Source: Eucalyptus grandis | Taxonomy: Eukaryota > Streptophyta > Magnoliopsida > Myrtales > Myrtaceae | DNA length: 64,000 nucleotides | Direction of reading: 5' to 3' | Assembly: GCF_016545825.1 (NCBI RefSeq) | Contig: NC_052613.1 | Coordinates: 42,638,112 to 42,702,111, forward strand | Part shown: piece by piece, positions 988-31,321 of the stretch | Layout of the letters: the number at the start of each line of letters is the position of its first letter | How positions within the stretch are numbered: the stretch's first letter is position 1 | Program-made: the position numbers and the translations under genes | Notes under the pieces: generated by a model | Databases searched by the model: none | What the model saw: only the letters and a program-made list of their open reading frames with translations | What the model was told of the DNA's origin: nothing

Positions 988-1234
988 GCTAGTTGACGTA
1001 TTGAGGCCCTAAACCACGCTCATGAAGGGAATCCAAAGGAGCTTCCAGTCCCACGATAGTATAGTCCAAGGCTTGTCCCACACTCCTTTTGACTAAGACG
1101 ATCATGAAAGGCTCCACTCCTTTAAACTAACCACAACCTATATTTCTCCTCGCAGGCCGTGGGCAATTCCATTCTTGAGCGAAACATATTCGTTCACAGC
1201 TTACGAGTCCCCAGTTGCTCCATCCATTGAAAAA

Positions 1235-5870: not shown

Positions 5871-6181
5871 CTCAAAATATTCGTTCAAAAATAAATCTGT
5901 CGCGACGACAGATCCTTCACGCCCGAGATCGCACGCGGACATTGAATTCTTCCATCGAATCGTCTCTCTCTCTTTAGGATTCGGACGTTCTTGCGTGATC
6001 TTTTCTTGCTTTTTTCTTGAGACGGAGCGAAAGATTTTGTGGGTTGCTTTGCTTTGCGATCTTTGTCTCGGCGTTCCGGTAAAAATACGATCTTTTGTGG
6101 GGGATAGGTTCTTCGTTAGGGGGTGGTCGGATAAAGAGGTAGTTTTTTTTTTTATCTTTTTTTTTTTTTGAATCGGGGAGG

Positions 6182-6472
6182 ATGAACGAGCAGGCGCACC
6201 TGATGAATCAGGCGCCGATGATGATGAACCAGAGCCCGATGATGAACCCACCGCCTCCGCCGCAGGTCATCATGAATCAGGCCCCCCAGCTGATGAGCGC
6301 GTCTCAGTCGATGAGCCAGCCCCCTCAACTGCTGAGCCAGCCTCAGTTGATTGGCCAGCCTCAGGTCCTGAATCAGCAGCCCCAGTTGATGGGCCAGTCT
6401 CAGATGTTGAGTCAATCTCAGGTGCCCAGTTTGAACAGGAGTTACAAGATGTGGCCTCAGAAGCAGAAGCAG

Positions 6473-6507
<35 letters not shown>

Positions 6508-9703: not shown

Positions 9704-12700
9704 TTACTTCGTTCCATCCACACGTAGGTGCACAAAAACTATGTTGTTGTAGCCCCGACTGATCCTGATTTTGTCATCTGTATATCTGCGAGAGAAAAGA
9801 GAGGTATGCATGCGTGATAGGATCAAATTCTGGGGTGTTTTTAGCTGTCAAGAGGTTTAGAAGAGACGTAGGAGACAGCAAAGTCTTACAAAAGTTCCAG
9901 CTTAAACTTGGTCTCCATTTCCACAGGATATCCAAATGGTCCTCCGATGATGGCAGCGTCGTCCATCGTGACATCATACGCATTGGTGCCAGATTTCCTG
10001 TGAAGGTATGAGATGCGTTAAAACCATTACTTCAAATTTTGCGAAAGCTGCAGTGCAGTTTCAGGAACTGTGCGCATGAATTCGTGCAATGAGCATGTTC
10101 GTATGTGAACGAGTTGCGGGGCCAGGAACACTCGAGCAAACTTAACTTACAATGCAATAAAAGACGTACAGCAAGAGATTTATCTTATAAACTCTAATGC
10201 TCGATAAGCAGGAATGACATCATCCAGCCGCGGTGGGGGCAGCAATGACATCATCCAGCGACCGGTGGGGTCGTTCGTATCGTGATGCATGTCACGTCTA
10301 TAACCCACACAGCTGAGCTCGGTGGAGAACCAGTTTAACTTCAATTTACAAAAACGTATTCATAGATTGAAAACAATACGACTTCTCTTTTTAGTAAGAA
10401 AGAAATCACTTTACCTAAATCATCAAATAAATGAAAACTAACAATTTTCTTTAAAAATAATTTTCATGAAAAGTAATTTTTTTTTTTATCATGAAGTTTT
10501 CAGTTAAACAAATACGTGAACTTTTATCAAACTAAATTTTGTTGGATATCTTTGCATTTCTGAAAGATTGGATGCTTCATACTCTCAATCATTTCAGGTT
10601 ATATTTTTAGCTACTCCACCTTCAAGGACGGTCAAGTGGTGGGCCTCTGACTCCGAATTCGTAATGGGATTGGTTGTGGCATTATTAATCACCTGGGCAT
10701 CCAAAGAGCACCTGCTCACATGCGTATGTAAATGCACATGCGCAAGCGTACAAGAGTGTTGTAGATACTTGTATATTCCAACGTGTCTAGTGATCCATAT
10801 TTGCACATATATTGGATGTTGCTTCGTACCGTCAGACAGGAATTGCATAAATATTCTCTGTAGGTGTACATATCTTTCACCTTGCCTTCGATATAGTGTT
10901 CTCTACTAAGAACCAGAAACCAAGTGCAACGGCGCATATCCTACCCCAGAGCAAGAGAGAAAGGAAGGAGGGATGCTTACACAAATGAGCCATTCATGGA
11001 GAATCTCAGGCCAGGCAAGATGTTCACCACAAATTTCAGTTGTCCACTTTTGACAATCTGCAAAGAGCAGGACGTGCTTAAGAAGTGATGGACTCGTACT
11101 AAACGGTTATGAAAAGGACATTATTCTTAAACCTACCTGTCTTCCCATAAGGCCATTAGCTGCATTCTCTATCCAACTGTCTGTCTCCATCTGCACCGCA
11201 CAATAAATGGTTTAGGTTCCGTAAGAAGCAATGAGATGCACTAAGGATAGGTCACCGTTGTTTAAATCACACTGCTGTATTTTGTATTGCAGAAGCTGTG
11301 TTGGAAATTTTCGAGTTTTGTATGGCAAGATAATTTTGTCGGAATGGTTGTGGCATCTTGTTAACAAAGAAAAATTCTAGGACCAACTGGAAACATAGTG
11401 CTGCAATACTGCACCACGTTCATTCCATTAGGTTTACGTGATAGCCAAAGCACCGAAGTGCCAATCCATTCAGGTCGATGAAAGTCAGTAAAAGTAATTT
11501 CCATGAAGCTACCTGTGAACTCCAGATCATATTCCATTCACCTTCTACAAGTTCAAGCTCGCCATCACCTTTGTTCTTGCTTGAAGATGTGATCTCATCA
11601 ATTGCCTACGACAATGATTCAGCATCATTTCAGTTAACATTCAGGAACCTCCTCAATCAAACTCTACGGTGATTGGATTCCATTCACCTTTTCGATTCCC
11701 TTTCCAGTGGAAATAGCTGACAGTAACAATTGCCTAGGTTCAGTCAGCTTTTGCAGCACAAAGGTGGTTCCCTGCACTACAACCCGATAAAGGCGTACCC
11801 TTAGCTGAACAATTTATGGCGGCTTTTGCCAATCAAATCCTTAAGTTCTCATCTGGTTAATAAAGAAGGCAGTCAAATAACGAAATATGGACCTTAATAT
11901 CTCATTCACCTTATTTCCTCTTGAGATGCGGAGGTTTCCAGATTCTGACAAATATGTGGTGTCTAACCATCCTTTTGCTTCATCTCCAAGAAGCCTAAAT
12001 GGCACTGGATATGGAACCTTGAATGGTAGAAATTTAATGGAAAAAGCCGCCCTATCAAACTGAAAAAGGATCCTTTTTCCATCACTGATTGATGCAGCTG
12101 CCTGTAGGTAAAAAGTTAAGTAAGGTAAGTCAACTAATATGAGAGGAAAGAACACGACACTTTCCATGTAATAGTGAATTGCTTGGTAAAGGGTGGGAAA
12201 AATAAAAAAACAACATATTGCTGTAAGTTGTAAAGCATATGACGCTGCACTTACACAAGCCATCCAAAGATTTGTCCATACTTTATATCACCCACGACGA
12301 CAGAATCAACTCCAATGTCAAGGGAAAAAATCGCCAGTCATGGAAGAATAAATTTAGTAGGAGAAAAAATGCTAAAAGCTTCCCTTGCATGTAAGGATCA
12401 CAAATTTGGCAAAGACAAAATTGGTTTCATTCTCAACTCAATTTGTGGATAAGCTGCAAAAAACTGTGAAGCAGATGCACAACGAGAATGAGAATATTAT
12501 TATGTAATTTACATGCCACAGTTAGCAAAATGTCAAGATGGCTTTTCATTCCGTAGTCATCGATCAAAATTTAAGTTCATAGCCCTTAAAAGGAAGAAGG
12601 TCATACCTCTACTTTTAACTCGCCAATGGCTTCAGAGAATACTACGATGTTGGACACACGTGGATCATTTGATCTAAGATATATCTCTTGAAATACGCTA

Positions 12701-13976
12701 AACACGTCAACGCCGACAAATGTTCTCTGCAGATGATTCGGTATGCTGTTAGTCTCTTCACATCATCCAAAATCTTGAACACTTAGAATTGGATATTTTT
12801 ATGAAATTGGCAGGCAGACAAAATTCCATAACAGGTTCTGATCTTCTGCATCTGATGTGTTTTGCCAATTTAAGTAAAGTTATCATCTGCATGAGTAGAT
12901 TATCAACACATCTAGAAGTATGTGAAAAGAAACGAAGACATGCATCTAAATGAGGACAGATCGTCTAAATTATTTTAAAAGTCAAAACAAGCAACATCAA
13001 ACAAGATATCATTTATTCATAACTGTTCATCTTATCCAAGCAAATCACAGGGCTACTAATACACCATGCTCTCATGGTGCGTCTATTGCAAATGGAGGCA
13101 GTTTAAGCTAGATATCATCCCATGTTAAAACCAAGCACAAACACTACCTGAATTGGGGATGCTGTTCCAGGTCGAGTTGTAAACATCAACTGCCATCGAC
13201 CTTCAATTAGATCGGAGCTTGTCTGCAAATAATTACCACCATATCAACATGCCAAACAGGCATAATCATCTTTAAAACCAGTAAAGCAATATGGTTATCT
13301 GCCTAGCTAGCACAATGGACATTCTTAGTGTCGAAAACTACATTCGAGCTTCCGAGCAAAAGTTTCTTCGACAGTGGACTAGTGTGTCATTGCGCACAAA
13401 CAGAAGAAAGAAGTGAAAATAAGCATGTACCGGATCCGGCACTCCTGTCAAAGTCTCCAGAACTGCAACTGCTCGTTCAACATCCTGTCAAAAATTCCGT
13501 TAGAATATTTAAATAATAAGCCACACTTTTATTCAACAACTTAAATTTTTGTAAAAATTGACAGTGATGTCATAAAATCTCGCCAATCCAAAAAGCAAAA
13601 CCCATCAGAAATGAAAAAATCATATTGATCTTGAATCGAGCCAGGCGAACACGAGCCTAACGCGACTTCAACAAGGAAAGAGGTATGAATCGCCGAACTC
13701 GCGGATTACCTGGACCTGCTGCGGAGTGGCAGAGCGACCGCGGCCTTGAATGCCGATGAGAGCTTCGATGAGCTGCGCCTCCGGATCAGTGAACGGGGAG
13801 GCCTCCCTGCTGCTCGCCGACGAGAGAGGAGCGGCAAGGGACGAGGCCGCCGCGACTCGGCTCCGGCGGCACTTGACGGACTTCGTCGGAGAGCAGCGGC
13901 CGAGGGATTGCGGAGCGAGGAGTGTGGGAGACGGCGTGACCGTGTTGAACTGAAGCCCGTGAACGCGGGAAGCCAT
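9704..13976 (-). CDS. PAP12: Plastid-lipid-associated protein / fibrillin, PAP12 (FBN10) type, complete 11-exon gene
   Basis: The gene encodes a chloroplast fibrillin, a lipocalin-like protein of plastoglobules or thylakoids thought to bind lipophilic molecules. Exons, read on the minus strand: 13976-13710, 13484-13431, 13222-13148, 12726-12607, 12101-11910, 11771-11688, 11605-11513, 11190-11137, 11057-10981, 9997-9890, 9785-9704. Every junction is GT-AG and in phase, summing to 1,206 nt, 401 residues plus stop. The N-terminus (MASRVHGLQF, then Arg/Ser-rich) looks like a transit peptide. Family blocks follow: ALIGIQGRGRSATPQQ, DLIEGRWQLMFTTRPGTASP, FDRAAFSIKFLPFKVPYPVP, RLLGDEAKGWLDTTYLS, the repeated ISRG motif and the C-terminal KIRISRGYNNIVFVH. 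Length matches the roughly 400 residues usual for PAP12. No frame break is seen. The promoter is interrupted by a transposon 204 bp upstream of the ATG. Confidence 0.9.
10212..10258. repeat. Short tandem repeat in a fibrillin intron
   Basis: The 16-base word AATGACATCATCCAGC occurs twice, at 10,212 and 10,243, within the long intron between the ninth and tenth exons. Confidence 0.7.
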
Positions 13977-14171: not shown

Positions 14172-14180
14172 GGGCCAACT
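14172..14180 (+). repeat. 9-bp target site duplication of the Pack-MULE, left copy
   Basis: GGGCCAACT lies directly outside the left terminal inverted repeat and recurs exactly outside the right one at 25,922-25,930. A nine-base duplication is the hallmark of Mutator-like insertion. Confidence 0.92.
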
Positions 14181-16011
14181 GAGAAAATATTGGGTACCCT
14201 AACAGTGCCACGTCATTCGTGCTCTGAACGATTCACGCGTCGACACCTGTCCTCGGGGCCCGCCACGTCTGCTCTCTTCTCTCCATCTTCTGCGCTTCTT
14301 TCTCTCTCCTCTCTCTTCTCTCTTTTTTCACTCTCTCCCGAATAACTCGGCTGGTGGCTCGGCTCGGCTCGGCTGGACTGGCAGAAGAAAGGACGACTCC
14401 CGCTTAAAATTTCTCTCTTCACTTAAATATTTTGGATTTTCTCTCTCTCCTCGTGGAAGAGCAGACAGAGAACGAGCTGCACTTCCTCTGTTTCGTTCTC
14501 AGCGCATCCGCCTCCGCCCTCTCGTCTAATCTTCCGTCGACGACTTGCTTTCCGCTCTGCTCGGAGCTGGTCCGTCCTGGTCGGTCGTCCGTCATCATCT
14601 TCACTCCGCTGATTCGAAGCTCGTAGAAATCGGAGACGCCGGCGATTTGGTGATGAACACTTGAAGGGAAGGAGCTTCGATCGGAGATGGCGGCCAATCA
14701 TCGCAACGAGGAGAGCGGCGGCTGCGTCGGCGGAAGGGGGAGTCGGTGGTCGTGGAGGGCGGCGTGGAGTGCGGCCGGCCGGGGAGCTTCTTCGAGTACT
14801 GCAGATCGCCAAATGGGTCCGCCGTTTCTCACGGTCCGTACGGTTTCTCCTTCGTTTCTCGTGGTTTTCTCCTCCCGTGTCGTTGAGTGCGGTTTTTGCC
14901 TGGGCCCGGTGGCTCGGGGATTTTGGGGTCGGCCGGGACTGAGATGCCGTGCTTCGGGGTTTGTCTTTTCCGGGCTTTGTCGTCTGTTGTGACGTTCACG
15001 ATTGGAATTGCTGATTTGCGTTTAGTCTTTAGTAGTTCCAATCCGCCGCTTCGTTGCGTGCGTCGGCTTGCACTGACGATTTTTTCTGTTTCGGGTTGTT
15101 TGTTTTTTAACGTCTCTTCGACTTGGATCGCGGAGCCTGACTGTGGATGACTATCAAGGTTGATGTGCAATTCCCTATTTTGAGAGTCTGGGCAGCTCTG
15201 GCCTGTTGATTCGCTCACTAATCGGCTCTCGACTGATGTAGTTTCATTATGTGCATATATCTGATTGAAAGAACTAGAGAAATTTCGAACGTTTGATCCG
15301 TATTGAGGGAAACTTATGGGTACTCATTCTATCAACTGTTAATACATGGACTTATTTTTTTCATATGTGCGTATTTAACTGCACGACCTCAGAGGAACCA
15401 TGTGGAAGCTATGGTCGATGCTGAAGTTCCGACTTGAGCCGTTTCTGCGCCTGTGTCTTCCCTTTTCCTTTTATTCTTCTTTCGAATGTACCGGTTGGAT
15501 TTCTCTGCTAGTTTTCAGCTACTTTGATCAAGTCTCTTTTCTGAAGGGTTTATGATCAGTTCTGATGCAAATGACTTTGCAGGATGGGCCACTAGTTTGT
15601 CTGCTTATGAAAGCGTTGTGGATTCAAATATTCTTTCTTTAATGTTGTTATTGAGATGACTGATGTTGGTCACGGTATGTTGTTCTGTTCTGGCTATTCT
15701 TGCCTCTGGGCATTTCTCTGTTTTTCTTTCAGGTCGTTTGCGAAAAACCATTCTCACCAACTTAGGGCTTTGCTTATTCCCTTTGGCAGAAACTTGGTCG
15801 TGTAAGAAAGCCCAGATTATGAGGCTTGAAATTCTAATCATGTATAATTGCACCAAAAGCAGAGCACACGCAAGATATCATGGGATTGCTCTTTAAATAT
15901 ATTGACATCTTGCACCAGTCTGGCGTTTGCGAGTGGATTTATGACGAGGTATGGATCCAAAATACCTATTTAGGACTATGAGTTGCAAATATGATAAGTT
16001 CAGGATACTAC
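14181..16011 (+). repeat. Left terminal inverted repeat of the Pack-MULE
   Basis: The repeat is 1,831 bases, matching the reverse complement of 24,082-25,921 with a few indels and substitutions. Outer to inner it holds a pyrimidine-rich promoter-like stretch (about 14,270-14,460), a possible first exon with ATG at 14,687 (MAANHRNEESGG), a GC-rich transcribed-looking region, and two peptidase exons (15,583-15,674 and 15,863-15,948). Compared with the right arm it lacks one G near 14,730 and one C near 15,632. The second loss breaks the peptidase frame. Confidence 0.9.
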
Positions 16012-19000
16012 TTGCAGCTCATCCTGTGCAAGAGGACAACCAGATGCTCTCTGGACTCTCTGATGGTCGCCTTGCAATGCCTTTACCTGCATTTTGTTTG
16101 TGGAATCACTTAGTCAAGAATGAGAGAAGCGATTATTGGGCCAAATTTTGGACTTTCAAAAATTTGTTGTAATCAGCAAGAGTTGACCCTTCTTCATCTC
16201 ATACCATTCTTTTAGTGTATTAGGGACTGATGAGCATCTTCGTGAAAATAACTAAAAAAGATAGCTGAGTATCTGAGTGCAGGTTCAATATGTGTCCGAT
16301 TTCCTATAAGTTAAGAAATAAGTTGCACAGTTCTCTATTATACTTGTGTCAATTTGCTATCTGCGGCCTCATTTTGTCATGCATGATTGCCATCAAACTA
16401 GTTTCATTTTCTATCAATAACTGCTGTGATTCCTGGTTAGTTTTAGCACATTCATCAACTGAGGTAAGAGTGGAATGATATACAATGCCTGCATTAACCT
16501 ATAGATTTTTTGCTTGTGGCTATTGGTTAGTCATTTGTTTTTTCTGTCCCATGCCAGCATATAGATACTTTATCTTGCTACAGAAGGCCCCAGCCCACTA
16601 CCCATCCAAGGTTTCTTGAATGTGTTATGAATTATTCTGACTATCTGATTTGTCTGCCTGGGTGAAAGAATCAGCTTCGTTTATGTAGAGAGTTCTGGCC
16701 ATAGGAAAAAAATACACACAGATATATGTACATTTATTTTGTGTGTGTATTTACATACATATACAAATTGGGCATTGATTCGATGCAGAAATATTTCCTT
16801 TTTCACATCCTTATTCCTCCAGTAAGTGGGGTTCTCCATTTACAACATGCTCACTCTTTTTCTGATTTTCTTAAGCTGGAAGTCAGTGGCTATTATCACA
16901 AGTTGCGGGTATTATTGGATACCATCCTGAAAGCAATGGCAGATTTTGCAGTGAAGCCAGAAAGATTTTCTGTGATCAAGGTAATCATGAAATTTATGCT
17001 GCAGAAAGAAGCTTATATCAGTTCCTGTGTATCAATAATCTTTCATACGCTTGGTTGAGGAAATCTAGATAAGTGCAGGCCAGAAGCAGCAACTACTTTT
17101 TATATTTTTTGACTTTTGTTATATGATCTACCAAAACATTTGCATTAGTTCCTGTAAGGACTACAAAATAATTTTTTTGGGGGCGTCAGGACTGCAGAAC
17201 AATAGGAGAAGCATCCTGTTATGTGGGTTCTTTATTGGTGGAAATTGTGGATACTTCTGCTAATTGATCTAAAAGCTCAAGCTATTACGTGAAGGAGTAT
17301 TTTACTGTTTAAATGTTTAAACAACCCCACATGCATAGGCTAAACTTTGACCTAAGACTGAGGCGTGGAAATTGACTATGATTGGGGGGCTCACGAAAGG
17401 TTTGTCAGGACCTATTATAATACCAGGACCATGTAAGTTCAAGCTATTAGATGGAGACATAACTTAAAATTATAAAATTCTAACAAGTTTAATGTATTGA
17501 AATACTCTAAGAAATGTTGATATTATCTTTGCCTTATTCATACTGTCAAAGTGCCATAAACTTGGCAATCCATGTTCTCTTCGAGATCAGATAGCTTGAA
17601 GAAGACCAATTAATTGTGAACTCTGGTCAACTTTTCTCAAGAAGCTTCCACAACATTAGGCAGAAATGCCAATCATTTTGCAGAGTAATGTTTTTATCTG
17701 GTCATATTCGATATCTAATCAGGAAATCTCTTTGTACTTGACTAAGTCGTGAAATTGCAAAGGGTCCAAACACACTTTGCTGATTCAAGCAATACTTCTT
17801 AAAAGAACCGCCACTAGAGCAGTAGCTTCCAGATTGGTTCTGTTATGCTTTGACATAAAATACGTCATAAAGTAATCTTATTCGTCAAGTTTCCTGAGCT
17901 ATGTGCTGGCTGCACCAATTACTATTAAGACTCATCTTTTATTGTCTTCCAGGAGAAGTTGACAAAGAGTTATCAGAATTTCAAGTTTGATGAGCCAAGA
18001 TATCATGCCTCATATTATCGCTCTTTAATATTAAATGACCATTCATGGCCTTGGGAGGAAGATCTAGAAATACTTGAGACTCTTCAGCCTGAAGACCTTT
18101 CTCGGTTTGCACCTACAATACTCTCGAGAGCATTCTTAGAGTGTTAGTGATTTTAGAAGTCGTCCCTTTCTTTTGTAAGTTAACTCTCTCATATTTGAAT
18201 CTTGATCTACTTTTATTTTGTCATCACTTACTAGGGAATATAGAGCATGATGAAGCAGAGTCAATTGTTCATCATGTCGAAGATGTTTTCTTTAATGGTT
18301 CTCATCCTATATGCAAACCTGTGCTCCAATCCAGCTCATGACAAGCAGACTCGTCACACTTGACGAGGTTGTAAATCACGTCTACTCAACTGAAGGCCTA
18401 AACCCAAATGATGAGAATTCTGCATTGCTTCACTATATTCAGGTACTTTTACTCAACAATATTAATGAAAAGAACAAATTTCTGTCCGCATAACTTTGTC
18501 ATGAAATCTTCTGGCCTGTCTTTTGCCTAAATAGACATTCAAGATGACTCCCGACTCTAATGAACTTAATTGGCCTAGGCCACCTTTGGTGACACATTGC
18601 GCATGGTTTACTCCTTGGGGATAGGTTCAACAATTAGAATTGTGCATGGTTTACCCCCTTGGGATGGTTGATTTCTGACACACTTATTCACTTTCAGAAA
18701 GTATATGTTTTTTTTTTTGGTAAAGAAACAAGTAGTCAGAAAGTATATGTTTGTACATTAGCAAAGACAAAAAGTTCATCAGATTACAAGCATTAAAAAT
18801 CATGGAGTAACTCATTTTGGTAGGTCTACTTAGTCTTTTCTGTATGTATTTGATTACAATCCCCATGGATAATTGCAGATCCATCAAGATGACATTACTT
18901 TGAACATACAACTTCAGCTTTTGGCTTTTATTGCAAGTCATGAAGCCTTCCACCAGCTCAGAACAGTTAATCTTAACAGGGTCCAAGGTACATCGACACA

Positions 19001-19776
19001 CGGGTCTTGAGATTTCTTGAGTCTTTCGAAAGTAAACTCCTTAAGATGAGTGAGGTTGATTTCAAGGTGAGTTGTTTCTCCGTGTTCCATCATGAAAATC
19101 ATGTCAGCTTGTCAAATAATCTTTAAACCATTACATCGAACCTGTGGAATTTCTGCCTTTGACAAAGCCATTTAAACACACTAATTGAATCAAAGATGGA
19201 GAAGGACAAGAATTTGTGGGAAGAATCTGAGCGTCACTGGGAAGAGATAACTGATAGAACTTTCCTATTTGATCGAATAGTAACTAAGGTACAAGATATT
19301 GCCTCTCTCTCTCTCTCTCTCTATTGCAGACATCAAATCCTAGTCTTCTCAGTAGTGACTGAGCAAATCGACACTATTTTTCATCTACTATTGGTTTTGC
19401 CTACATTCATCTTCTGCTTGATCTCTTTTTATGGAACTAAAATTGGCAGTATGCCCTTTCCCTCCTCTCAGCTGAAACTGCCTAATTTATCTTCATAAAG
19501 CCGGACATGCAAAGCAACTCACGAAAATTCACTTCGTTTGCATTGGACCAGGTCACAGCATTAAGGAAGCTGGCAAAACAAGAATTGATAGCTTTCTTCA
19601 ACAAGCACATACGAATTGGAGCGCCCAAGAGGAAGGTGCTTAGTGTACGAGTTTATGGGAGCAAGCATTCATCAAATTTTGAAGTGGATAACAATAAAGC
19701 AGTTGGACCAAACACAGTACGAATAGATGACATTTTTAGCTTCAGGGCATCGCAACCTCTTTACGGTTCACATTGA
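15583..19776 (+). pseudogene. Insulin-degrading-enzyme-like (M16 zinc metallopeptidase) gene remnant, left arm
   Basis: Exon pieces match plant IDE-like M16 peptidases in order. They are 15,583-15,674 (GWATSLSAYESVVDSN), 15,863-15,948 (QDIMGLLFKYIDILHQSG), 16,876-16,980 (VSGYYHKLRVLLDTI, FAVKPERFSVIK), about 17,953-18,146 (SYQNFKFDEPRYH, SWPWEEDLEILETL, LSRAFLEC), about 18,236-18,440 (NIEHDEAESIVHHVEDVFF, LNPNDENSALLHYIQ), about 18,880-19,064 (HQDDITLNIQLQLL, FHQLRTV, FESKLLKMSEVDFK), about 19,190-19,288 and 19,552-19,776 (QELIAFFNKHIRIGAP, LSVRVYGS, DDIFSFRASQPLYGS). The N-terminal third with the HxxEH zinc site is absent, as is the segment between the second and third pieces. There are frame breaks near 15,632 and 18,334, and about 30 codons are missing after FHQLRTV. 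It cannot encode an active peptidase. Confidence 0.85.
16012..16875 (+). other. Pack-MULE interior between left arm and captured 3' exons
   Basis: This part is AT-rich intron-like sequence. The peptidase exons expected here (DKI.P..YVV.IASNM and the next ones) are missing from this strand. Some of them occur instead on the minus strand at 22.0-22.9 kb. Confidence 0.5.
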
Positions 19777-20892
19777 AGAGGGTATGAACATATGGAAGTT
19801 CACAGCAAATTCTAAATAAGCTACAGTTGAGGATCTTGGATAATGTACTCCTGAAACATTTCTCCAAAATCTATACTACCACGCCACACTTGCCCTGTGG
19901 CATTTGTACCTTATAGCGTTTTAGTGTTTGGTGTGTGTAAATGACTAAAGGTATTACTTGGGATTTTACTAGACAGCGGAACACAAGAATAGGTGTTTGC
20001 TCCAGCTCAATGTTCCTAACCGAGTGAGCAAAACTGCTGGTGCTGGAATTAGGGTGTAATGCATATACGAATCCATACCATTGAGAGTTTCATAGCAAGA
20101 CAAGCTCATAAACTATGAGAATTTTCAAATTAACGAATGTCCTAGTTGCCAATTCTCCATAAAAAGCATACTTACTCTGCAGTGAAATGCTGGCTCTTCC
20201 CACAATTAAGTACCAGAGGCATCTGGAAATATCGAGAGCTTGGCCCCCTCAGCTCCGTAAAACATTATTCGATTCATGTTGAGGACATCTGCCGAGAGGT
20301 TGCATAACCTCGAAGCATGGGAAAATGCTAGCAAAAGGCCGTGAATTGATGAGACATAGCCTAGATTGCAGTGCAAAAATGCGACGAATGATGTAGTTAT
20401 GGTGCCACGCGATATTGTTCCATTGTCCTCCGTGGTCAATTTGTGGGTGCTGTAGAGCAAATTCTTGTTCTTAAATTAGACAATAGTGCTTGTTTTTTAG
20501 ATCTTGTATTCTAGGAACATTTAGGGCACAACACCATAGCACTTGGGGACAAGAATTATCGATTTGGACATTGTCAAACCGTTAACAAAAGATTGATCGA
20601 GATCGATGAACTGGTCAAGAAAAATGAATTGAGAACAAAATTCATTCATTCAAAATAATGAATCACTACTACGTGAATTATTGATTTAAGCTATCTAGGG
20701 ACCAAATTGAACCAATTGAATGAAGACACAATCTATGTGAAAAAATATGTGAAAAGACAAGAAACAACTTGATTTTTTGGCTTGATGTCTAGGGACAAAA
20801 TTGACAATGGAGACACAATTCGTGTTTGAAAAAATATGCGAGAAGACAGGAAACAGCTCAATTTTTTGGCTGGATGTCTTCCCTATAAACGC
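19777..20892. other. Pack-MULE interior, unassigned
   Basis: An open frame on the minus strand (20,460-20,206, ending IFPDASGT) is not recognised and may be the last exon of another captured gene. Two diverged tandem copies of a roughly 90-base unit lie at 20,697-20,789 and 20,790-20,879, sharing AATATG, GAAGACA and ATTTTTTGGCT words. Confidence 0.4.
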
Positions 20893-21168
20893 TCAAAACA
20901 CATCCCAAATAGAGAAATCTAAACTCTTCCTCACACAACAGAAAAGCATGAGTTCAATAGAGTCGATTCTGAGCCTGTGGTCCGGACGAGGGCCATTGCC
21001 TGTGCTGCCGCTCAAGGAGTGGTGGTGGTGGTGGTGGTGGTGGTTGTCGTCATCGTCGTCATGGTTGGAGGGAGGATGGTAATACAAACGTGCGGTTTGT
21101 GGGCAGTTAGAGTGGAACCTTGCAGCCATCCTCACCCCTAGATCCAGCAATTCCACGTACTTCCCCAT
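20893..21168 (-). CDS. Small plant protein of unknown function (MGKYVE / CPQTAR type), captured in the Pack-MULE
   Basis: The 91-residue frame starts [19 protein letters not shown] and continues [19 protein letters not shown], a His run encoded by a GTG/CAC microsatellite, and a tail with [14 protein letters not shown] recall short plant proteins that open with MGKYVE and carry H-CPQTAR-YYHPP; their function is unknown to me. The frame is intact. A start further up (21,195) is in frame, but the MGKYVE start fits the family. It lies downstream of ALF4-like exons on the same strand and may be a separate capture. Whether it is expressed is unknown. Confidence 0.6.
21018..21063. repeat. GTG / GTC trinucleotide microsatellite
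   Basis: About nine GTG units are followed by GTC/ATC units. On the minus strand they encode poly-His and poly-Asp in the small captured gene. Confidence 0.85.
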
Positions 21169-21317
21169 GGAGTTACCATAAAGGAAGAGATGCAATTTGT
21201 AATCAGGGCTTTTAAGACATCAAACCTTTGAGAAATTGCAATATCAGCAAGCATCTGGAGACTGGGAAATAATTGCACAACTTAAACAAGAGAGAAACGG
21301 ACTACAAGAGTGACGAG

Positions 21318-21490
21318 CTGTTTAGTGAAGCAAGAGCAGAGGATCCTAAGTCAAAAACACTAACCCTTTCCAGTACATCAAAAGCTTTCTTCCTTAGCAC
21401 AGCATCTGTTTAGTGAAGCAAGAGCAGAGGATCTTAAGTCAAAAACACTAACCCTTTCCAGTACATCAAAAGCTTTCTTCCTTAGCACAT
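21318..21490 (-). repeat. 88-bp tandem duplication over an ALF4-like exon end
   Basis: Copy one is 21,318-21,405 and copy two starts at 21,406. They are almost identical, differing by one base in 'aggatcctaag/aggatcttaag'. The repeat includes the exon 3' end (LRKKAFDVLER) and its splice donor, so the donor is doubled. Confidence 0.85.
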
Positions 21491-21736
21491 CATCCGATGT
21501 GTACATGATGACGTTGTCAATCCCAAGATTTTGCACTTTAATGATAAGTAGAATATACAAAATGAAATGGCACAAAATCAACATCTTTAACTATAATACC
21601 TGCAAGGCAGCAAAATGGCTAGGAACAAATGATGAGAAATCTAGAGTTTCACTCTCACTCTCCTGTGAGATATCTCCTTCTGTGGTGCAAAGCAAGAAGT
21701 CAATGGCATGTTTCTTTAATCTCCAAGGTACAGTAG
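21430..21736 (-). pseudogene. ALF4-like (aberrant lateral root formation 4) exon fragments
   Basis: Two adjacent exons on the minus strand resemble plant ALF4, a protein needed for lateral root initiation. The first (21,736-21,600) reads TVPWRLKKHAIDFLLC and ends with SFVPSHFAALQ before a GT donor. The second (about 21,535-21,430) reads DNVIMYTSDDVLRKKAFDVLER. Order and spacing fit an intron-containing source gene. Only this small portion is present, so it is a captured fragment within the Pack-MULE. Identification is from remembered family motifs and should be confirmed by search. Confidence 0.6.
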
Positions 21737-22048
21737 CTGAACAAAACATGCCTTAGGATGCCAATTGCTTGCCACCTTCTGGTTTGACGAACCCGAATTT
21801 CATTCTTTACAGCATTAAATCCTCCTCAGCATTATGAGCAACAGTTGGTTTGACTACCAACAGTTATGGTGCTGGTCATCATGTCAATAGCAGACCCTGT
21901 TATCAAGCCAATGTAAGATAAACGGCAACATCTCAAGAAGTGTGAAAGTTCAATCACTGGATACATGACCTGATCCAATGTTATGAATGTCAAGATGGTG
22001 AATTAGTTCAAAAAGCCCGCCAAATGGACCTAAGATTGATCAGGCCAC

Positions 22049-24512
22049 CTTGTCAGTCTTCTTGAGGGACAAGTCAGTGGCAATAAACTGATTAGCCACT
22101 GGCAAACGAAGATGTTCATTTGAAGCTCACTGCACCCACTCCTAATATATAATAAGGAATCAAAAGCGAACACCACAATGCATTTTTTGGAGTTATGTTT
22201 TTTACGGAAATAGTTATCATATGCCACTTTTCTTGATTCATATGCCAAAAATCAAATTTAGCAGGAAAAGAGAGAGCTGTAAATAAGTAGACGAAAGTAA
22301 TGGAGTGAGTGGAGAAAGGGGCAAAAAAATTGTAGAAGCTATATGCTAAAGTCCAATATTTTAAGGCTGGCCTGAATAAAAGAGGAAAGTAAAGTCAAAA
22401 GTTTTGATACTGCCCTGGAAAAACATCCAAGTACAACCATCAAAAGAAACATCCAAGTACAACCAGATATACTTATTGTCTAGCAAAGGAAATTGATCAC
22501 ATCTTGTGACTTCCGTTGGGTGTCATTGTAACTCAAAAATCAAAGTTAAATCTGAATAGGACTTTATGTTATCTCATCACACCAATTCCCTCTGACTCCT
22601 AAACTTCCAAGAGAAAATATCTAGTATCTACATCGTATGCTATTCCAGTTTACTTGAAGAGGACCAGCAGGATTGGTCTGAAGTCTGAACTAGGAAAGAT
22701 ACAAATGTTTTCCATAGAATGCATGCACATCATCAATTTAGAGAGGTAAACACATTATACAAGAAAGTTTGGATACCTTCATATTTGATGCTATGGAGAC
22801 CACATAACTCATTGGAGAGATCTTATCCTGATTGTGCAACAATCGTCTCCCTTACAGCTGCAATCTTCACCAAAAGATTAAATTAGGATCCACACAGAAC
22901 CTCTGACATTCATATTTACTCACACAAGATGAGGTGCTCATACAGGGTGGTTTCAGAATCCTTTAATTCCAATTCAAACTTGAATCACATTCACTCATTC
23001 CATGCCACTGCCATTTATGATCAATTCGACAGATTTAATGTACATTGCAATTTGGAAATGTTATGCCTAATTTTCTAGTCACGTACAAAATGCAAGAATT
23101 TACTCATTCCTTTCTTCTTTTGGTGCAAAAGACAGATTTAAAATACCATTTTACCCATTTCAAAATATATTAGACATGGAAACATGTACACATAGTAGTG
23201 TCTGCAAGTGTGTTTAGTTACTGCTCAACAAATCAATGACAAAGATTAGAGAATTACGATCTCTTTCTTTTAACAGGCCTGTCAAAAACCAACCTTGATG
23301 CTGTTAAAATGTCCAACCCAAAAGTTTAAGCTGGTAAGTGTAAGGAGACCACATGAATATAAGGCCCATATAAACCCAGTAGACATGCGATGTGAGGTAC
23401 TTCAACAGATGCGTTATTCAATAGATGCGTTATTCTCTTTTAACACAAATGAGGTAGTGCTTTCTCATTTGACAAACTAAAAGCAACTATTCTAGTAAGA
23501 AAAGTACCCTCAACAAGCTTCTTGAACTCGTAAGCTTACATTATAATGCATTACCATTTTACGAAAGTCACAATCAAAGATAGAGCTGCAAGGACCAAAA
23601 TTTAGATGACTTCCCTTCCATTGAAGCCCTAATGGATACATCTGCCGGTTCTACCTGTATTCAGAGTCATCCAATAAATTTTTTCTCCACATTTTGTAGA
23701 ACTTTTGCCATGATGGAAACATCATCACATTTGTGACAGCTATTAAAGGACAGAGGGATGTTTAAGAAGCACAAGTGTCATCAAAAGGTTGATTTCTTGC
23801 AACTGTTAGAGGCTATTATTTATTTAATTAATACAATTGATAATGTGAATGTCCCCTAAGAGACTTGCTCTGACAACATTTGATAGAAGTTGTATCTAGC
23901 AAAGTATAGAAGAAGCTCGAATGCATGTACCCTCAAGTTCCCAATTACGAAAATGCTGCAATGCGGAGCATCAGGATTCTTGGCTAGCATTGTCGCTGTA
24001 ATATAAAGTCCATACACCAGTCAATTACCTCCTTAGCTAATGTATAACGTAGAAATGAGTAAATACACGCAAGGGCCACAGGTAGTATCCTGAACTTATC
24101 ATATTTGCAACTCATAGTCCTAAATAGGTATTTTGGATCCATACCTCGTCATAAATCCACTCGCAAACGCCAGACTGGTGCAAGATGTCAATATATTTAA
24201 AGAGCAATCCCATGATATCTTGCGTGTGCTCTGCTTTTTGGTGCAATTATACATGATTAGAATTTCAAGCCTCATAATCTGGGCTTTCTTACACGACCAA
24301 GTTTCTGCCAAAGGGAATAAGCAAAGCCCTAAGTTGGTGAGAATGGTTTTTCGCAAACGACCTGAAAGAAAAACAGAGAAATGCCCAGAGGCAAGAATAG
24401 CCAGAACAGAACAACATACCGTGACCAACATCAGTCATCTCAATAACAACATTAAAGAAAGGAATATTTGAATCCACAACGCTTTCATAAGCAGACAAAC
24501 TAGTGGCCCATC
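22049..24512 (-). pseudogene. Insulin-degrading-enzyme-like gene remnant, right arm
   Basis: Reading the minus strand inward from the right arm, the exons are 24,512-24,420 (GWATSLSAYES, SNIPFFNVVIEMTDVGH, frame intact here), 24,230-24,145 (MGLLFKYIDILHQSG, CEWIYDE), 22,864-22,777 (IAAVRET, then after a frame slip NQDKISPMSYVVSIASNMK) and about 22,128-22,049 (NEHLRLPVANQFIATDLSLK). These follow the M16 peptidase order from the middle of the protein. They cover part of the segment missing in the left copy. Everything C-terminal is absent and replaced by ALF4-like sequence. An extra exon-like piece at about 24,005-23,942 (MLAKNPDAPHCSIFVIGNLR) is not recognised. Confidence 0.8.
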
Positions 24513-25921
24513 CTGCAAAGTCATTTGCATCAGAACTGATCATAAACCCTTCAGAAAAGAGACTTGATCAAAGTAGCTGAAAACTAGCAGAGAAATCCAA
24601 CCGGTACATTCGAAAGAAGAATAAAAGGAAAAGGGAAGACACAGGCGCAGAAACGGCTCAAGTCGGAACTTCAGCATCGACCATAGCTTCCACATGGTTC
24701 CTCTGAGGTCGTGCAGTTAAATACGCACATATGAAAAAATAAGTCCATGTATTAACAGTTGATAGAATGAGTACCCATAAGTTTCCCTCAATACGGATCA
24801 AACGTTCGAAATTTCTCTAGTTCTTTCAATCAGATATATGCACATAATGAAACTACATCAGTCGAGAGCCGATTAGTGACAGCGAATCAACAGGCCAGAG
24901 CTGCCCAGACTCTCAAAATAGGGAATTGCACATCAACCTTGATAGTCATCCACAGTCAGGCTCCGCGATCCAAGTCGAAGAGACGTTAAAAAACAAACAA
25001 CCCGAAACAGAAAAAATCGTCAGTGCAAGCCGACGCACGCAACGAAGCGGCGGATTGGAACTACTAAAGACTAAACGCAAATCAGCAATTCCAATCGTGA
25101 ACGTCACAACAGACGACAAAGCCCGGAAAAGACAAACCCCGAAGCACGGCATCTCCAGTCCCGGCCGACCCCAAAATCCCCGAGCCACCGGAGCCCGGGC
25201 AAAAACCGCACTCAACGACACGGGAGGGAGAAAACCACGAGAAACGAAGGAGAAACCGTACGGACCGTGAGAAACGGCGGACCCATTTGGCGATCTGCAG
25301 TACTCGAAGAAGCTCCCCGGCCGGCCGCACTCCACGCCGCCCTCCACGACCACCGACTCCCCCCTTCCGCCGACGCAGCCGCCGCTCGCCTCGTTGCGAT
25401 GATTGGCCGCCATCTCCGATCGAAGCTCCTTCCCTTCAAGTGTTCATCACCAAATCGCCGGCGTCTCCGATTTCTACGAGCTTCGAATCAGCGGAGTGAA
25501 GATGATGACGGACGACCGACCAGGACGGACCAGCTCCGAGCAGAGCGGAAAGCAAGTCGTCGACCGAAGATTAGACGAGAGGGCGGAGGCGGATGCGCTG
25601 AGAACGAAACAGAGGAAGTGCAGCTCGTTCTCTGTCTGCTCTTCCACGAGGAGAGAGAGAAAATCCAAAATATTTAAGTGAAGAGAGAGAAATTTTAAGC
25701 GGGAGTCGTCCTTTCTTCTGCCAGTCCAGCCGAGCCGAGCCGAGCCACCAGCCGAGTTATTCGGGAGAGAGTGAAAAGAGAGAAGAGAGAGGAGAGAGAA
25801 AGAAGCGCAGAAGATGGAGAGAAGAGAGAGCAGACGTGGCGGGCCCCGAGGACAGGTGTCGACGCGTGAATCGTTCAGAGCACGAATGACGTGGCACTGT
25901 TAGGGTACCCAATATTTTCTC
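24082..25921 (-). repeat. Right terminal inverted repeat of the Pack-MULE
   Basis: The repeat is 1,840 bases, the reverse complement of the left arm. It retains the uninterrupted versions of both places where the left arm has lost a base. A possible first exon opens at 25,413 (MAANHRNEASGG, then GRPGSFFEYCRSPNG). The product of that exon is not recognised and does not look like the peptidase N-terminus, so it may be a third captured source. Confidence 0.9.
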
Positions 25922-25930
25922 GGGCCAACT
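25922..25930 (+). repeat. 9-bp target site duplication of the Pack-MULE, right copy
   Basis: GGGCCAACT is identical to 14,172-14,180 and directly abuts the right tip of the element. Confidence 0.92.
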
Positions 25931-26822: not shown

Positions 26823-29800
26823 GTCGCGACCTAAATTTCGGGTGCACTGTTTAAGTTTGGGCTAATTGACTACTAAGTATTTAAACTTAGCTCGGACTCT
26901 CCTAAACTCATATCAATTCGCGACTTGATTTAAATATTTAACATGCAAATGATTAATATCTATGAGTCGTCACTAATCGATTTATGGTAGGTCGATTAGA
27001 CACCTAAGTAAAATAATAGGAGAATTATTTTACTCCTACAAACCGAGACTAAGGATACGGAAACTTGGTTACACTAGATTTCTTTAATGCCTTTTGATAT
27101 CATTTTGTTTTTAATTTTCAAAAATATTTTTTGCGGAGGCAACTTGGATTTATTTTAAGCTAAATTACTATTATGCAATGGAATGATCACCGTATGCTCA
27201 ATCATTATTAAACATTGAATAAAATAAATTGCACTAAATGAATTTCAAACACTAAATCAAGTATTTTTTCTTATTTAATATGCAAATGATTAATATCTAG
27301 AAGTCGCCACTATTAACACCTAAATTTTGGTGACATGTTTATTCATTTATCACATTAAAAAAATTAGGGATTAATTTTAACCCTTAAAAAATATTAGTTA
27401 ATTAATTAATTGCATATCATATAGTTTTAGGTGCATTTATTTTAATTTGCATTTACATTTGGTCGGTGATAGATGGGTTTGATTTGGTGATTCTGAGCTT
27501 TAAATTGATAGGTCAGATTAAGTCTACGAAGAGAGCAATTTAGCTCAAGCCTGTATTTGAAAAATCCTATTGTAATTTTTGAAAAGTCAATAATATTCAT
27601 TCTTGCAAAGGAAATCTAGAAGAGGTGTAGAAAATAAAAAGTGATATTACGTGCAAAAAAAATCTTCGTGGATATTGATTTGAAAAGAAATTAAAATCCT
27701 AATCTTTAGCCTATAAATAAGTTACTCGTGTAGGGTTTTAGGGGTGCCACAGACATTGAATATACGGCTGAAGGAGGCTTCTTCTCGGATTTTCTAAGGT
27801 TTTTCTTCGGATCATTCGGCAAAAGAGGCTTCCTTTCGTTCTTTGAAAAAAATCACACAAAAAACAAAGGAAAAAGCTTTGGAGGAAAGGCTGGTTTTGC
27901 TGAAAAGGTTCTGCAGAAAAATGAAAGAGCAGAGAAGAGTCAGCAGAGAGAGACGTGGGAAGCGACGTGCAGCAGAATGAAAAAAAAGGGAAAAAACAAA
28001 ACAGAGGAAGAAGAAGACCGGCGCTCCCTGCTGCCCGATCCCCTAACCGGCGCACCAGCAGCCAGGCCACCGTTGCACCGGCCACCTTGCCGCGTCACCG
28101 CTCCCGCACCGCACCGCCGCTCCGCTTCCGCCGCGTCCCGCCTCGCCGTCGCTGTTCCCGTGCCCTCTGCCGGAGTCTCTGCTCCGCCTCCGACTCGGCA
28201 CCACCACCGCTCCGATGCTTCCTCGAGCACAGCCCGGCAGCAGCTCACCCGAGCTAATCGCGCCCGAGCCGACCACCTGAGTCTCCCTCGCTGCGACACC
28301 AGTAGCCGTCGGCCTAGATCTGCCCACGACCCAGCGCTCGGTGTCCCTGCTCCAGCTGCGACCGACGCCACCAGGGCCCGACGCCGCGCCTCAGCAACTC
28401 GCGACCCAGCGACCTCCGCGCCCCTGCTGCTCCTTAACGCTCTGCCCGTCGACTGCCGATCTCACCGCGTCGCCCCTGCGCGCCGCTCGAACCCCCTCCT
28501 CCGTCCGACGATTCTGTAGCAGCTCTGTGCCTGCTGCTGCGGCACCACCGACCGCTACGCCCCTCACCGTCGCCGCCCGCCAGCCCTCGCCGGAGCTTCG
28601 ACGCCGATCAGCAACCGCCCGGTGCCGGCTACCGTCGCTGCTCCCCTTTCCAAACTCCTATTAGGTAGTTTTTATTTTTATTTCTATTTTTATTTTCATT
28701 TATTCTGTTTTACTTTTTTTGTTTATATTTTTTAAGTTTAGTTATTTAAATTGAATATTGGATGTCAAAACTCATGAATCTTGAAGGCTGCAAGGGTTTT
28801 GTTCAAAATTATTGTAATTATTAATTTGATCCGTAAGATATCGGATCATTTTTTTAATTATATTAATTTTTAAGTATTTTTATAGTATTTTAATTGTTAA
28901 GCCATTATAGTTATTAATTTGATACATAAGACTTCGGATCAGATTTTTTAATTATTTTGAAATGTTTAGGTTAATAGTAATTGTTAATTTAACCAGTGAG
29001 ACAACATATTTTTTTTATTATTTTAATCATTTATTTGGTGGATATCTTGATTATTTAGATGTAATTGCTTGTCTTGGGAAAAACACTAAAAAAACATAAA
29101 AATCAAAAAATCAAATCTTGCAATAGAGTATGTTGGTTTTGTAAATCAAGATTGCATTTGTAGGATTGCATTTTTATATGATTTTTAGAATAAATTAGGA
29201 TTGATTTTGTTTTTTTAGATAAGACTCTTAAATAATGTTTGCACATTTAGATAATCTCATTTTTCTTAAACAATAGTTTTATAAGATAGGATAGGGTTTA
29301 AGTCAAATTAATCTCTAAAATAAATTAGAAAATTATTTATTTTAGATAACTTAATTAGGGTTTTTATAAATTCCGAATTTCAATAAAAATACAAAAATAT
29401 TAGGTGCATAGTTTGCATAATAGATTCATTTAATTAGAATTTATTTGTTAGTAAAATTAGGTTATGTAGTTAGAATGCATGTTTTAATTTTGAGATAAAA
29501 GAAAATCCAAAAAAATGTTTGCTTTAATGTGTAGAATTCATTTGGTGCAATTTATTTATTCAATGTTTATTAACGATTGAGTATCCGTGTGATCATCCCA
29601 TTGCAAGATAATAATTTAGGTTAAAATAAATCCAAGCGCTTGCAAAAACATTTAAAAAAAAAAATGGTACTGAAAGAACATTAGAGGAATCTAATGTAAT
29701 CCAAGTTCTTGTACCTTTAACCTTTGGTTCGTAGGAGTAAAATAATTATCCCATTATTTTACTTGTGTCTAATCGATCTACCATAAATCGATTAGTGGCG

Positions 29801-29945
29801 ACTCTTAGATAATAATTTTTTGCATACTAGATTTTTGAACCTAAGTCGCGAATTAGTATTTAGAGTTTGGGAGAGCTCGAGTTAGTTTAGGCTAGTAGTT
29901 CATTAGTCTAATTTTAGGTGATGCATTCGAAATTTAGGTCGCGAT
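26823..29945 (+). mobile_element. AT-rich TIR element with GC-rich core, full copy
   Basis: The left end (26,823, tgtcgcgacctaaattt) and right end (aaatttaggtcgcgatg at about 29,929-29,945) are inverted repeats. They extend inward some 400-470 bases with moderate divergence, for example taatcgatttatggtagg on the left against its complement near 29,780. The interior has a TATA-like cctataaataag (27,709), then a GC-rich block (28,020-28,660) of Pro/Ala/Arg-coding composition in all frames, then a 900-base AT-rich tract. No transposase or retroviral-type domain is recognised. It could be a fold-back or MULE-like non-autonomous element; the classification is open. Confidence 0.55.
28020..28660. 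other. GC-rich core of the TIR element
   Basis: Long open frames occur on both strands simply because the sequence is GC-rich and stop-poor. None shows a recognisable domain. I do not call a gene here. Confidence 0.5.
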
Positions 29946-29947
29946 GA

Positions 29948-31321
29948 CCATTAATCGATTTATGGTTGGTCGATTAGACACCTAAGTAAAATAATGGTAT
30001 TTTACTCCTACAAACCAAAACTAAGCGTACGGAAACTTGGGCTTCACTTGATTTCTTAACGCCATTTCTGTCATTACCGTTTTTTTAATTTTCAAAAATA
30101 TTTTTGCAGAAATTGATTTATTTTAAGTTAAATTACTATCATGCAATGGAGTGATTACATAGATGTTCAATCATTATTAAAAATTGAATAAAATAAATTG
30201 CAAAATGAATTCTAGACACTAAAGCAAGTATTTTTTTCTTTTAACTAGAACTTTATCATAAATCATGCATTTAAACTATATGACATAATTTTACTAACAA
30301 GCTATTTCTAATTGACATGCACCTAATATTTTTGTATTTTTCTTATTAAAAATCGGAATTAATAAAAATCTTAATTAAAATATCTTAAATGAATAATTTT
30401 CTAATATGTTTTAGGATTAATTTGATTTAAACCATATCCTATCTTAGAAAACCATTTTTTAAAGAAAATGAGATTATCTAAATGTGCAAACATTATTTAA
30501 GAGCCTTATTTAAAAAAATTCAATCCTAATTTATTCCAAAATTATCTAAAAGTGCAATCCTAAAAATGCAATCCTAATTTACTAAAACACTCGATGTAAG
30601 ATTTGATTTTTGATTTTTATGTTTTTTTTAGTGTTTTTCCAAGATAAACAACTATATCTAAACAATTCTTACATTTTACCAAAAAAAAAAAAACAACTAT
30701 ATTTAAACAATCAAGATATTTATCAAATAAATGATTAAAATAATCGAAAATAACTTGTTGTCTTACGGGTCAAATTAACAATTACTCTAACCCTAAACAT
30801 CATGATAAAAGGTTTAAAATAATTAAAAATTTGATTCAAAATCTTATGGATTAAATTAATAATTGTAATGATTTAACAATTAAAATACTATTAAAATGCA
30901 TAAAAATTAATATAATTAAAAAAAAAATGATCCGACGTCTCACGTATCAAATTAATAATTACCATAATTTTGGACAAAACCCTTATGGTTAATGCCTACA
31001 TAAATATTGACATCCAATGTTACAATTTAGATAACTAAACTTTAAAATAATAAGATAAAATAACATAAAATAAGTGACAAATAAAAATTAAAAATTAAAA
31101 ATTAAAAATAAGCTACCTAAGGGGGAGGGCGGGAAGGATAGAGACGCAGCCTACGGGGATCGGATGTGGACCGAGCCGCCTGCGCAGCTGGTACGGTGCG
31201 GCGTCGCCGAGGGAGGGCTCCGTGCGGTGGCGAGAGGCGACGGGTGTTGGCGAGGCTGCAGCGAAGCGATGGAGGCGGAGATGCTGGTGCGGTGGCGTCG
31301 GTCTCCGGGCGGTAGTGCAGG
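29948..31321 (-). mobile_element. Second, truncated copy of the TIR element in inverted orientation
   Basis: Read on the minus strand, this runs from a GC-rich core fragment (31,321-31,120) through an AT-rich tract matching 28,670-29,600 (for example the 'gacatccaat' region at 31,010 against 28,760) and ends in the TIR words at 29,948-30,050. It is tail-to-tail with the full copy. Its outer about 190 bases of TIR are missing at the junction, and its other end is cut at 31,322 by an LTR. Confidence 0.55.

What the first reader, a model, noticed from the sequence alone, without database searches (positions are those of the whole stretch)
14172..25930. An 11.7-kb Pack-MULE with exact 9-bp target duplication and 1.83-kb gene-bearing TIRs
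GGGCCAACT flanks both tips exactly, and the arms are almost identical. Most MULE TIRs are 100-500 bases; these are far longer and contain promoter-like sequence plus exons of a captured peptidase gene. I see no transposase. It is the most striking single structure in the window.
Basis: partly seen in the sequence, partly recalled or inferred. Interest (0 to 1): 0.9.

Follow-up and report, generated by a model that had tools for sequence, protein, structure and literature searches.

The report
Jumping gene with gene-lengthened inverted ends
This is a real plant jumping gene whose two mirror-image ends have been lengthened by copying in the start of one ordinary plant gene and part of another, and related copies elsewhere in the genome suggest how such ends may grow and stay matched.

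Summary
Arms 14181-16014 and 24079-25921 match at 1827 of 1846 columns (4 substitutions, 11 indels), and are flanked by GGGCCAACT, found nowhere else in the window. It is best called a non-autonomous Pack-MULE; the host is almost certainly Eucalyptus grandis.

Genome searches resolved the anatomy:
- Each TIR fuses a ~330-bp MULE end, the 5' end of an arginyl-tRNA-protein-transferase-like gene (parent on C10, 92%), and part of an insulin-degrading-enzyme (IDE) gene (parent on C1, 93%).
- Most of the interior is the same IDE locus, in complementary halves on opposite strands.

A near-full copy on C6 has its own perfect 9-bp TSD, so the architecture has moved as a unit. Other elements sharing the tip module carry 1.6-2.1-kb TIRs with two unrelated extensions, so long TIRs recur.

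The window's arms differ by 0.22% in substitutions but by at least 2.68% from the seven other arms compared: they were homogenised after the architecture arose.

Template switching during gap repair is the favoured mechanism (inferred). MULE membership rests on structure; no transposase-bearing partner was identified. The element lies 204 bp upstream of a PAP_fibrillin start codon.

The parts
14172..14180 (.). left copy of 9-bp target-site duplication GGGCCAACT
25922..25930 (.). right copy of 9-bp target-site duplication GGGCCAACT
14181..16014 (+). left TIR (1834 bp)
24079..25921 (-). right TIR (1843 bp)
14181..14511 (+). ancestral MULE TIR core (about 330 bp), matched at about 73-86% by other ends in the genome; the right mirror copy is 25591-25921
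14561..15516 (+). captured 5' end of an arginyl-tRNA-protein-transferase (ATE1-like) gene; mirror copy 24579-25539 (-); parent at C10 about 3.1757-3.1767 Mb, 91-92%
14687..14833 (+). exon-1-like ORF start (ATG) of the ATE1-like piece; left copy frameshifted; mirror 25266-25413 (-) is open
15511..16011 (+). IDE parent 1194-1694 in the left TIR (93%), with exons 15583-15674 and 15863-15948, the complete intron between them, and the outer acceptor and donor sites; the mirror exons in the right TIR are 24420-24512 and 24145-24230 (-)
16014..21169 (+). IDE parent 4995-10546 with small gaps: pieces of protein residues 579-968 (interrupted by stops and frameshifts; 785-814 not found), then 3' flank
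21170..21957 (.). 788-bp central stretch of unknown origin, with an 88-bp tandem duplication at 21318-21494
21958..24584 (-). IDE parent 1194-3626 and 4258-4491 read inward from the right end (its first 0.5 kb lies in the right TIR); residues 375-399 at 22774-22848 and 468-504 at 22031-22141, with a stop
11841..13976 (-). neighbouring PAP_fibrillin gene (exon pieces within this stretch matched); its ATG at 13976 is 204 bp from the element tip; context, not part of the element

Best explanation
A non-autonomous Mutator-like element (Pack-MULE, 11,741 bp) of Eucalyptus grandis. SHOWN: an exact 9-bp TSD; a relative at C6 with the same anatomy and a different perfect 9-bp TSD, and a C9 relative sharing the junctions; TIRs fused from a ~330-bp MULE end, an ATE1-like gene 5' end and an IDE piece; one captured IDE locus split into complementary halves on opposite strands that overlap by 0.5 kb; arms much more alike within the window's copy than between copies. 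INFERRED: the element moves with a transposase supplied in trans. An ancestor carried one end reading MULE-ATE1-IDE. After an excision or fork collapse, repair copied that end onto the other (wrong-end strand invasion through the shared TIR), with template switches, some at short homologies, so both ends became the same extended end while each arm kept a different part of IDE. Later repair between arms homogenised them again. The insertion 204 bp 5' of a fibrillin gene may affect that gene, and read-through RNA could form a long hairpin carrying ATE1 and IDE sequence; neither effect was tested.
For: TSD and arms. IDE identity. IDE residues 1-312 (where, from recall, the zinc site lies) not found in the element at E<=1. 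A complete GT/AG intron in each TIR and introns aligned to the parent, so this was DNA capture. Copies and their TSDs. Parents: C10 gene with ATE_C (E 1.1e-41 on a read-through translation); C1 IDE cluster. IDE-derived bases: 8284 of 11741. Short homology at junctions: GTTTTC (6 bp) at ATE-IDE, and an imperfect 16-bp overlap at the right-arm deletion. Junctions shared with relatives: left with C9, C1, C2; right with C6, C9, C5. Arms: window L-R 0.22% against 2.68-5.63% to seven other arms; by-side topologies rejected, AU p <= 1.2e-4. IDE fragments: 17 listed loci outside the C1 cluster, 11 of 17 within 25 kb of a TIR match. [quoted passage not shown] PMC3440606 describes Mu killer, with both TIRs from one end and inverted partial copies (passages).
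Against: No MULE transposase was placed near these ends: of 150 scored MULE-domain sites (767 candidates), the nearest to the 39 TIR matches compared (of 45; the six on C10 left out as parent-gene matches) is 61.5 kb away. The progenitor with one extended end was not found, so the repair route is inferred. The left-arm junction at 16011 shows only 2-3 bp of shared sequence. Homogenisation is clear for the window copy but mixed for C6 and C9: 8 of 36 informative sites pair C9_L with C6_R. C9:43.85, C2:26.23 and C5:17.74 show no perfect 9-11-bp TSD. 788 bp remain unexplained.
Confidence: 0.85

Rival explanations
1. A Mu-killer-like silencing locus: the inverted arms are kept because read-through transcripts fold into long dsRNA, and siRNAs then act on the MULE family and on the parental ATE1 and IDE genes.
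For: 1.83-kb arms with sense-inward ATE1 and IDE exons. PMC3440606 reports the proposal that Mu killer, an internally deleted and partly duplicated MuDR, makes hairpin RNA (passages).
Against: No RNA data. 8064 bp separate the arms. A relative has its own TSD, so it behaves as a transposon first. The same paper describes short antisense transcripts that cannot form large hairpins and leaves the hairpin route to minor longer transcripts.
Confidence: 0.2
2. Two element copies in opposite orientation recombined (or one nested in the other with partial deletion), giving an inverted composite later mobilised by its outer ends.
For: Complementary IDE parts on opposite strands. An IDE-bearing relative in which the blast found no ATE1 module exists (C5:17.74).
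Against: Both arms carry the same ATE1-IDE junction and near-identical sequence; no internal MULE tip with 3 or fewer mismatches remains.
Confidence: 0.25
3. Assembly artefact (a palindromic mis-join).
For: 9 of 11 arm indels are bases missing from the left arm, many in homopolymers or CT runs.
Against: The interior differs between arms; relatives on C6 and C9 have the same junctions; exact TSD.
Confidence: 0.02

Closest known systems
Pack-MULEs (non-autonomous Mutator-like elements carrying host gene fragments)
   Same: 9-bp TSD, TIRs, host gene pieces, no transposase found, insertion just 5' of a gene
   Different: TIR 1.83 kb against a typical 100-500 bp (PMC3310237) and 14-500 bp in the text of a survey, whose table also lists 640 bp (PMC6446971, passages); two genes fused inside the TIR; one captured gene split on both strands
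MULEs with acquired sequence in extended TIRs (noted in PMC3310237, citing Hanada 2009 and Lisch 2002)
   Same: host sequence incorporated in both TIRs
   Different: only that sentence was seen and the Hanada paper is not held, so its cases could not be compared; here parents, junctions and relatives are mapped
Mu killer of maize (PMC3440606)
   Same: both ends derive from one end; two partial copies of one gene in inverted orientation; internal deletion
   Different: there the duplicated gene is the mudrA transposase and the locus is a silencer; here it is host ATE1 and IDE, and a relative elsewhere shows it moved
Foldback-type MULEs / FARE elements (recalled)
   Same: very long inverted arms
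   Different: arms are unique gene-derived sequence, not modular short repeats (one search lists one weak 9-bp array, in the right arm only)

Membership tests
MULE superfamily | 9-11-bp target-site duplication | tested here: met
   9 bp exact in the window. Among related elements examined at both ends, perfect TSDs at C6:11.17 (9 bp), C6:6.50 (10 bp), C8:69.33 (10 bp) and C1:23.47 (9 bp). None perfect at C9:43.85, C2:26.23 or C5:17.74; C7:58.49 has a damaged left tip. In all 5 of 9 including the window. For C1:6.89 and C5:43.42 the second end was not found in the fetched stretch.
MULE superfamily | long TIRs (about 100 bp or more) | tested here: met
   1834/1843 bp
MULE superfamily | transposase of MULE type in the element, or TIRs shared with a transposase-bearing element | tested here: inconclusive
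   none found in the element. PF10551 domains are common in the genome (150 scored of 767 candidates) but none of those lies within 61 kb of the 39 TIR matches compared. Tip-pattern search not answered
Pack-MULE | fragment of a host gene with an identifiable parent elsewhere | tested here: met
   ATE1-like parent on C10; IDE parent on C1
Pack-MULE | mobility as a unit (copy with a different TSD) | tested here: met
   C6:11172294-11183716, 95.5-97.0% identical over three blocks (172 bp around the left-arm junction and one copy of the 88-bp repeat are missing there), TSD CTTTCTCTC
Mu killer-type rearranged MULE | both TIRs copied from one end | tested here: inconclusive
   both arms carry the same ATE1-IDE junction, but the progenitor is unknown
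Mu killer-type rearranged MULE | silencing activity through small RNA | not testable with these tools
   no RNA data held
Foldback/FARE | arms built of short modular repeats (recalled) | tested here: not met
   no tandem array listed in the left arm; one array, 25766-25834, in the right arm

The most novel reading that the evidence does not exclude
In this Eucalyptus MULE family, TIRs grow repeatedly by a copy-one-end-onto-the-other step during gap repair. Host gene pieces, 5' ends among them, become joined to a MULE end by template switching and are then copied onto the opposite end, and the same process keeps re-homogenising the arms at or between transpositions. Long, gene-bearing TIRs would be a normal product of Pack-MULE capture rather than accidents, and arm divergence would date the last repair rather than the capture.
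Probability: 0.4. Interest if true: 0.65.

Novelty: new variant of a known kind. Interest (0 to 1): 0.5.

Why it matters
[quoted passage not shown] Here both parental genes, the fusion junctions, a near-full relative with its own TSD, a related element with short arms, and two further unrelated long-TIR lineages sit in one assembled genome. Capture, TIR growth and arm homogenisation can therefore be ordered and tested. It also cautions that TIR identity may date repair, not capture, and it gives a concrete case of a MULE inserted 204 bp from the start codon of a fibrillin-family gene.

Tried and rejected
Considered and rejected: an arm palindrome by chance; an autonomous element (no transposase family); a retro-copied gene (introns kept); FARE-type modular arms; C6, C9 and window as independent origins (shared junctions and interior).

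Led nowhere: a search for homologues of the TIR's first-exon peptide (only proteins of about 244-777 aa were eligible; 2 candidates shared words, none scored); the C10 locus later explained it. Rfam and tRNA scans of the window found nothing. Pfam on 20 selected translations from relatives and the C10 locus and 10 more found no MULE transposase; one ORF of L025 matched Transposase_32 below its cut-off. Paper searches: Myrtaceae MULE, Pack-MULE with insulin-degrading and MULE/captured gene/within the TIR/inverted duplication listed nothing; 'extended TIR' listed one paper; Pack-MULE with Eucalyptus listed four (listing only). Papers seen: PMC3310237 parts 1 and 5 of 6 and passages; PMC6446971, PMC9168764, PMC8277862, PMC13317346, PMC3440606, PMC8903248 and PMC4858842 passages only; others as listings.

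Age: 3-4 substitutions in about 1830 sites would be on the order of 0.1-0.2 My at a recalled plant rate of 7e-9, but homogenisation makes this the age of the last arm repair at most.

Full report
1. What is there. The inverted arms run 14181-16014 and 24079-25921. 1827 of 1846 columns are identical, with 4 substitutions and 11 indel events (blastn 98.97%). GGGCCAACT abuts both tips and occurs nowhere else in the window on either strand. Both tips are GAGAAAATATTGGGTACC. Of the indels, 9 of 11 are bases missing from the left arm, many in homopolymers or CT runs, so some may be assembly errors.

2. The peptidase. Exons in the TIR and the interior match insulin-degrading-enzyme-like proteins (M16): PDB matches, Pfam Peptidase_M16_M and PqqF-like_C_4, best plant hit in Psidium, with Rhodamnia and Eucalyptus proteins next to that one. 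In Rhodamnia numbering (P0048), both TIRs carry residues 310-370. The + strand interior carries pieces of 579-968. The - strand interior carries 375-399 and 468-504, with a stop. Residues 1-312 were not found in the element at E<=1 apart from the three that overlap the 310-370 piece, and no convincing match was found to 400-467, 505-578 or 785-814. Each TIR holds one complete intron with GT/AG ends and the next acceptor and donor on either side.

3. Where it is. The genome search was mostly unreachable but answered three times. The window is G000:C2:42638112-42702111 of a 616.5-Mb, 36-contig assembly. Contig C1 is 53,951,317 bases, exactly the contig length listed for an E. grandis protein, P0130. 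I take the host to be Eucalyptus grandis (inference).

4. Relatives. The first 820 bases of the element matched 45 places (40 of 316 candidates scored). C6:11172294-11183716 is a near-full relative in reverse orientation, 95.5-97.0% identical over three blocks, with perfect TSD CTTTCTCTC. It lacks 172 bp around the left-arm junction and one copy of the 88-bp repeat. C9:43.85 Mb has the same anatomy, enlarged by insertions that carry retrotransposon domains; it has no matching TSD and a damaged left tip. C2:26.25 and C1:6.89 share the left junction, and C5:43.42 the right junction. The architecture therefore most simply arose once and has moved.

5. Anatomy of the TIR. Other ends in the genome share only about the outer 330 bp, at about 73-86%. 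Right-arm positions 383-1343 match a gene on C10 at 91.8%. Downstream sequence of that gene carries ATE_C (E 1.1e-41 on a read-through translation), so it is arginyl-tRNA-protein-transferase-like, and the TIR contains the ATG and exon-1-like start. Positions from 15511 (left) and 24584 (right) match the IDE gene at C1:44.6289-44.6385 Mb. The ATE1-IDE junction shares GTTTTC with both parents. In the right arm, the ATE1 start can be joined in frame to the IDE exons through plausible splice sites, giving 109 residues with no stop; the left arm is frameshifted. No transcript data were available.

6. Two parts of one gene. Against the IDE parent (gene orientation of L040 plus L041), the left arm carries 1194-1694, then 4995-7623, 7777-8088 and 8307-10546. 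The right arm carries 1194-3626 and 4258-4491 on the opposite strand. They are complementary apart from the shared 0.5 kb; neither carries 3627-4257 or 4492-4994. IDE-derived sequence makes up 8284 of 11741 bp. Unexplained are 788 bp in the centre (21170-21957), about 50 bp at the MULE-ATE1 junction and small gaps such as 18589-18615.

7. Arms evolve together. In a tree of nine arms, the window's two arms are sisters, as are C6's (99) and C9's (91). Topologies grouping arms by side are rejected (AU p <= 1.2e-4), and 0 of 36 informative sites support them, but 8 of 36 pair C9_L with C6_R. Window arms differ by 0.22%, C6 arms by 4.13%, C9 arms by 5.89%; window arms differ from the seven others by 2.68-5.63%. 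Since the junctions and interior are shared, the window's arms were homogenised after the split. For C6 and C9 the evidence is mixed: C6's two arms differ more from each other than its left arm does from the window's.

8. Long TIRs recur. L028 (C6:6.50 Mb, 10-bp TSD TGCTGACAAC) and L029 (C7:58.49 Mb) have 2.1-kb arms with the same tip module but no detected IDE or ATE1 (ATE1 parent compared with L028 only). Their arms cluster by element at 12 of 12 informative sites, though L028's arms (1.27%) are only a little closer than arms between the two copies (1.32-1.66%); L029's differ by 0.34%. C8:69326553-69341554 (15,002 bp, TSD GATAAACCGT) has 1.59-kb arms with a glucose-6-phosphate-isomerase-like stretch (single PDB hit, E 0.014, so weak) and ADP-glucose-pyrophosphorylase sequence inside. 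Beyond about position 340 the window, L028/L029 and C8 arms share no detectable sequence, so these are three separate extensions. C1:23.47 Mb (TSD CAAAAGAAA) and C5:17.74 Mb have short arms (142-192 aligned columns).

9. Mechanism. Shown: DNA-level capture from two genes, short homology at two of three junctions compared with both parents, movement as a unit, and arm homogenisation in the window copy. Inferred: trans-acting transposase, wrong-end gap repair, inter-arm repair. Template switching with microhomology is reported for Pack-TIR elements in animals (PMC8277862, passages). Acquired sequence in extended MULE TIRs is stated in PMC3310237 (passage). Mu killer gives a precedent for two ends from one end (PMC3440606, passages).

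10. Limits. No transposase-bearing partner was found: the nearest MULE domain among 150 scored (of 767 candidates) is 61.5 kb from the 39 TIR matches compared. Copy numbers are lower bounds, since only part of the candidates was scored. The promoter, expression, small-RNA and empty-site questions are open. The insertion lies 204 bp upstream of a PAP_fibrillin ATG; any effect is untested.

Noticed in passing
window 26824-31108: A cluster of diverged inverted and direct repeats (78-83% identical) lies just right of the element; it could be remains of nested or inverted repeats.
   Followed up: no
window 41704-43876 (within 37.9-43.9 kb): Tandem arrays of units of about 190 bp in a larger repeated block.
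   Followed up: no
window 1097-3684: Bulb-lectin/S-locus and protein-kinase ORFs overlap in different frames (1097-2812 and 2617-3684), which looks like one receptor-kinase gene with a frameshift.
   Followed up: partly
C10:2.96-3.19 Mb (L019-L024): Six places match the ATE1-like 5' end (72-96%, 78-92% over about 0.95 kb), suggesting a tandem arginyltransferase-like gene cluster.
   Followed up: partly
C1:44.608-44.719 Mb (L039-L041): A tandem cluster of IDE-like genes; IDE fragments occur at 17 listed loci outside it, 11 of them within 25 kb of a TIR match.
   Followed up: partly
L026/L027 (C5:17743436-17757122): A related element with short arms carries the IDE 579-971 part with no ATE1 match found, plus a stretch 90% like the C8 element's arm; it may link two capture histories.
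   Followed up: partly
window 20692-20879 and 21318-21494: An 88-bp (97%) tandem duplication in the centre, and a weaker 89-bp one in the IDE 3' flank.
   Followed up: no
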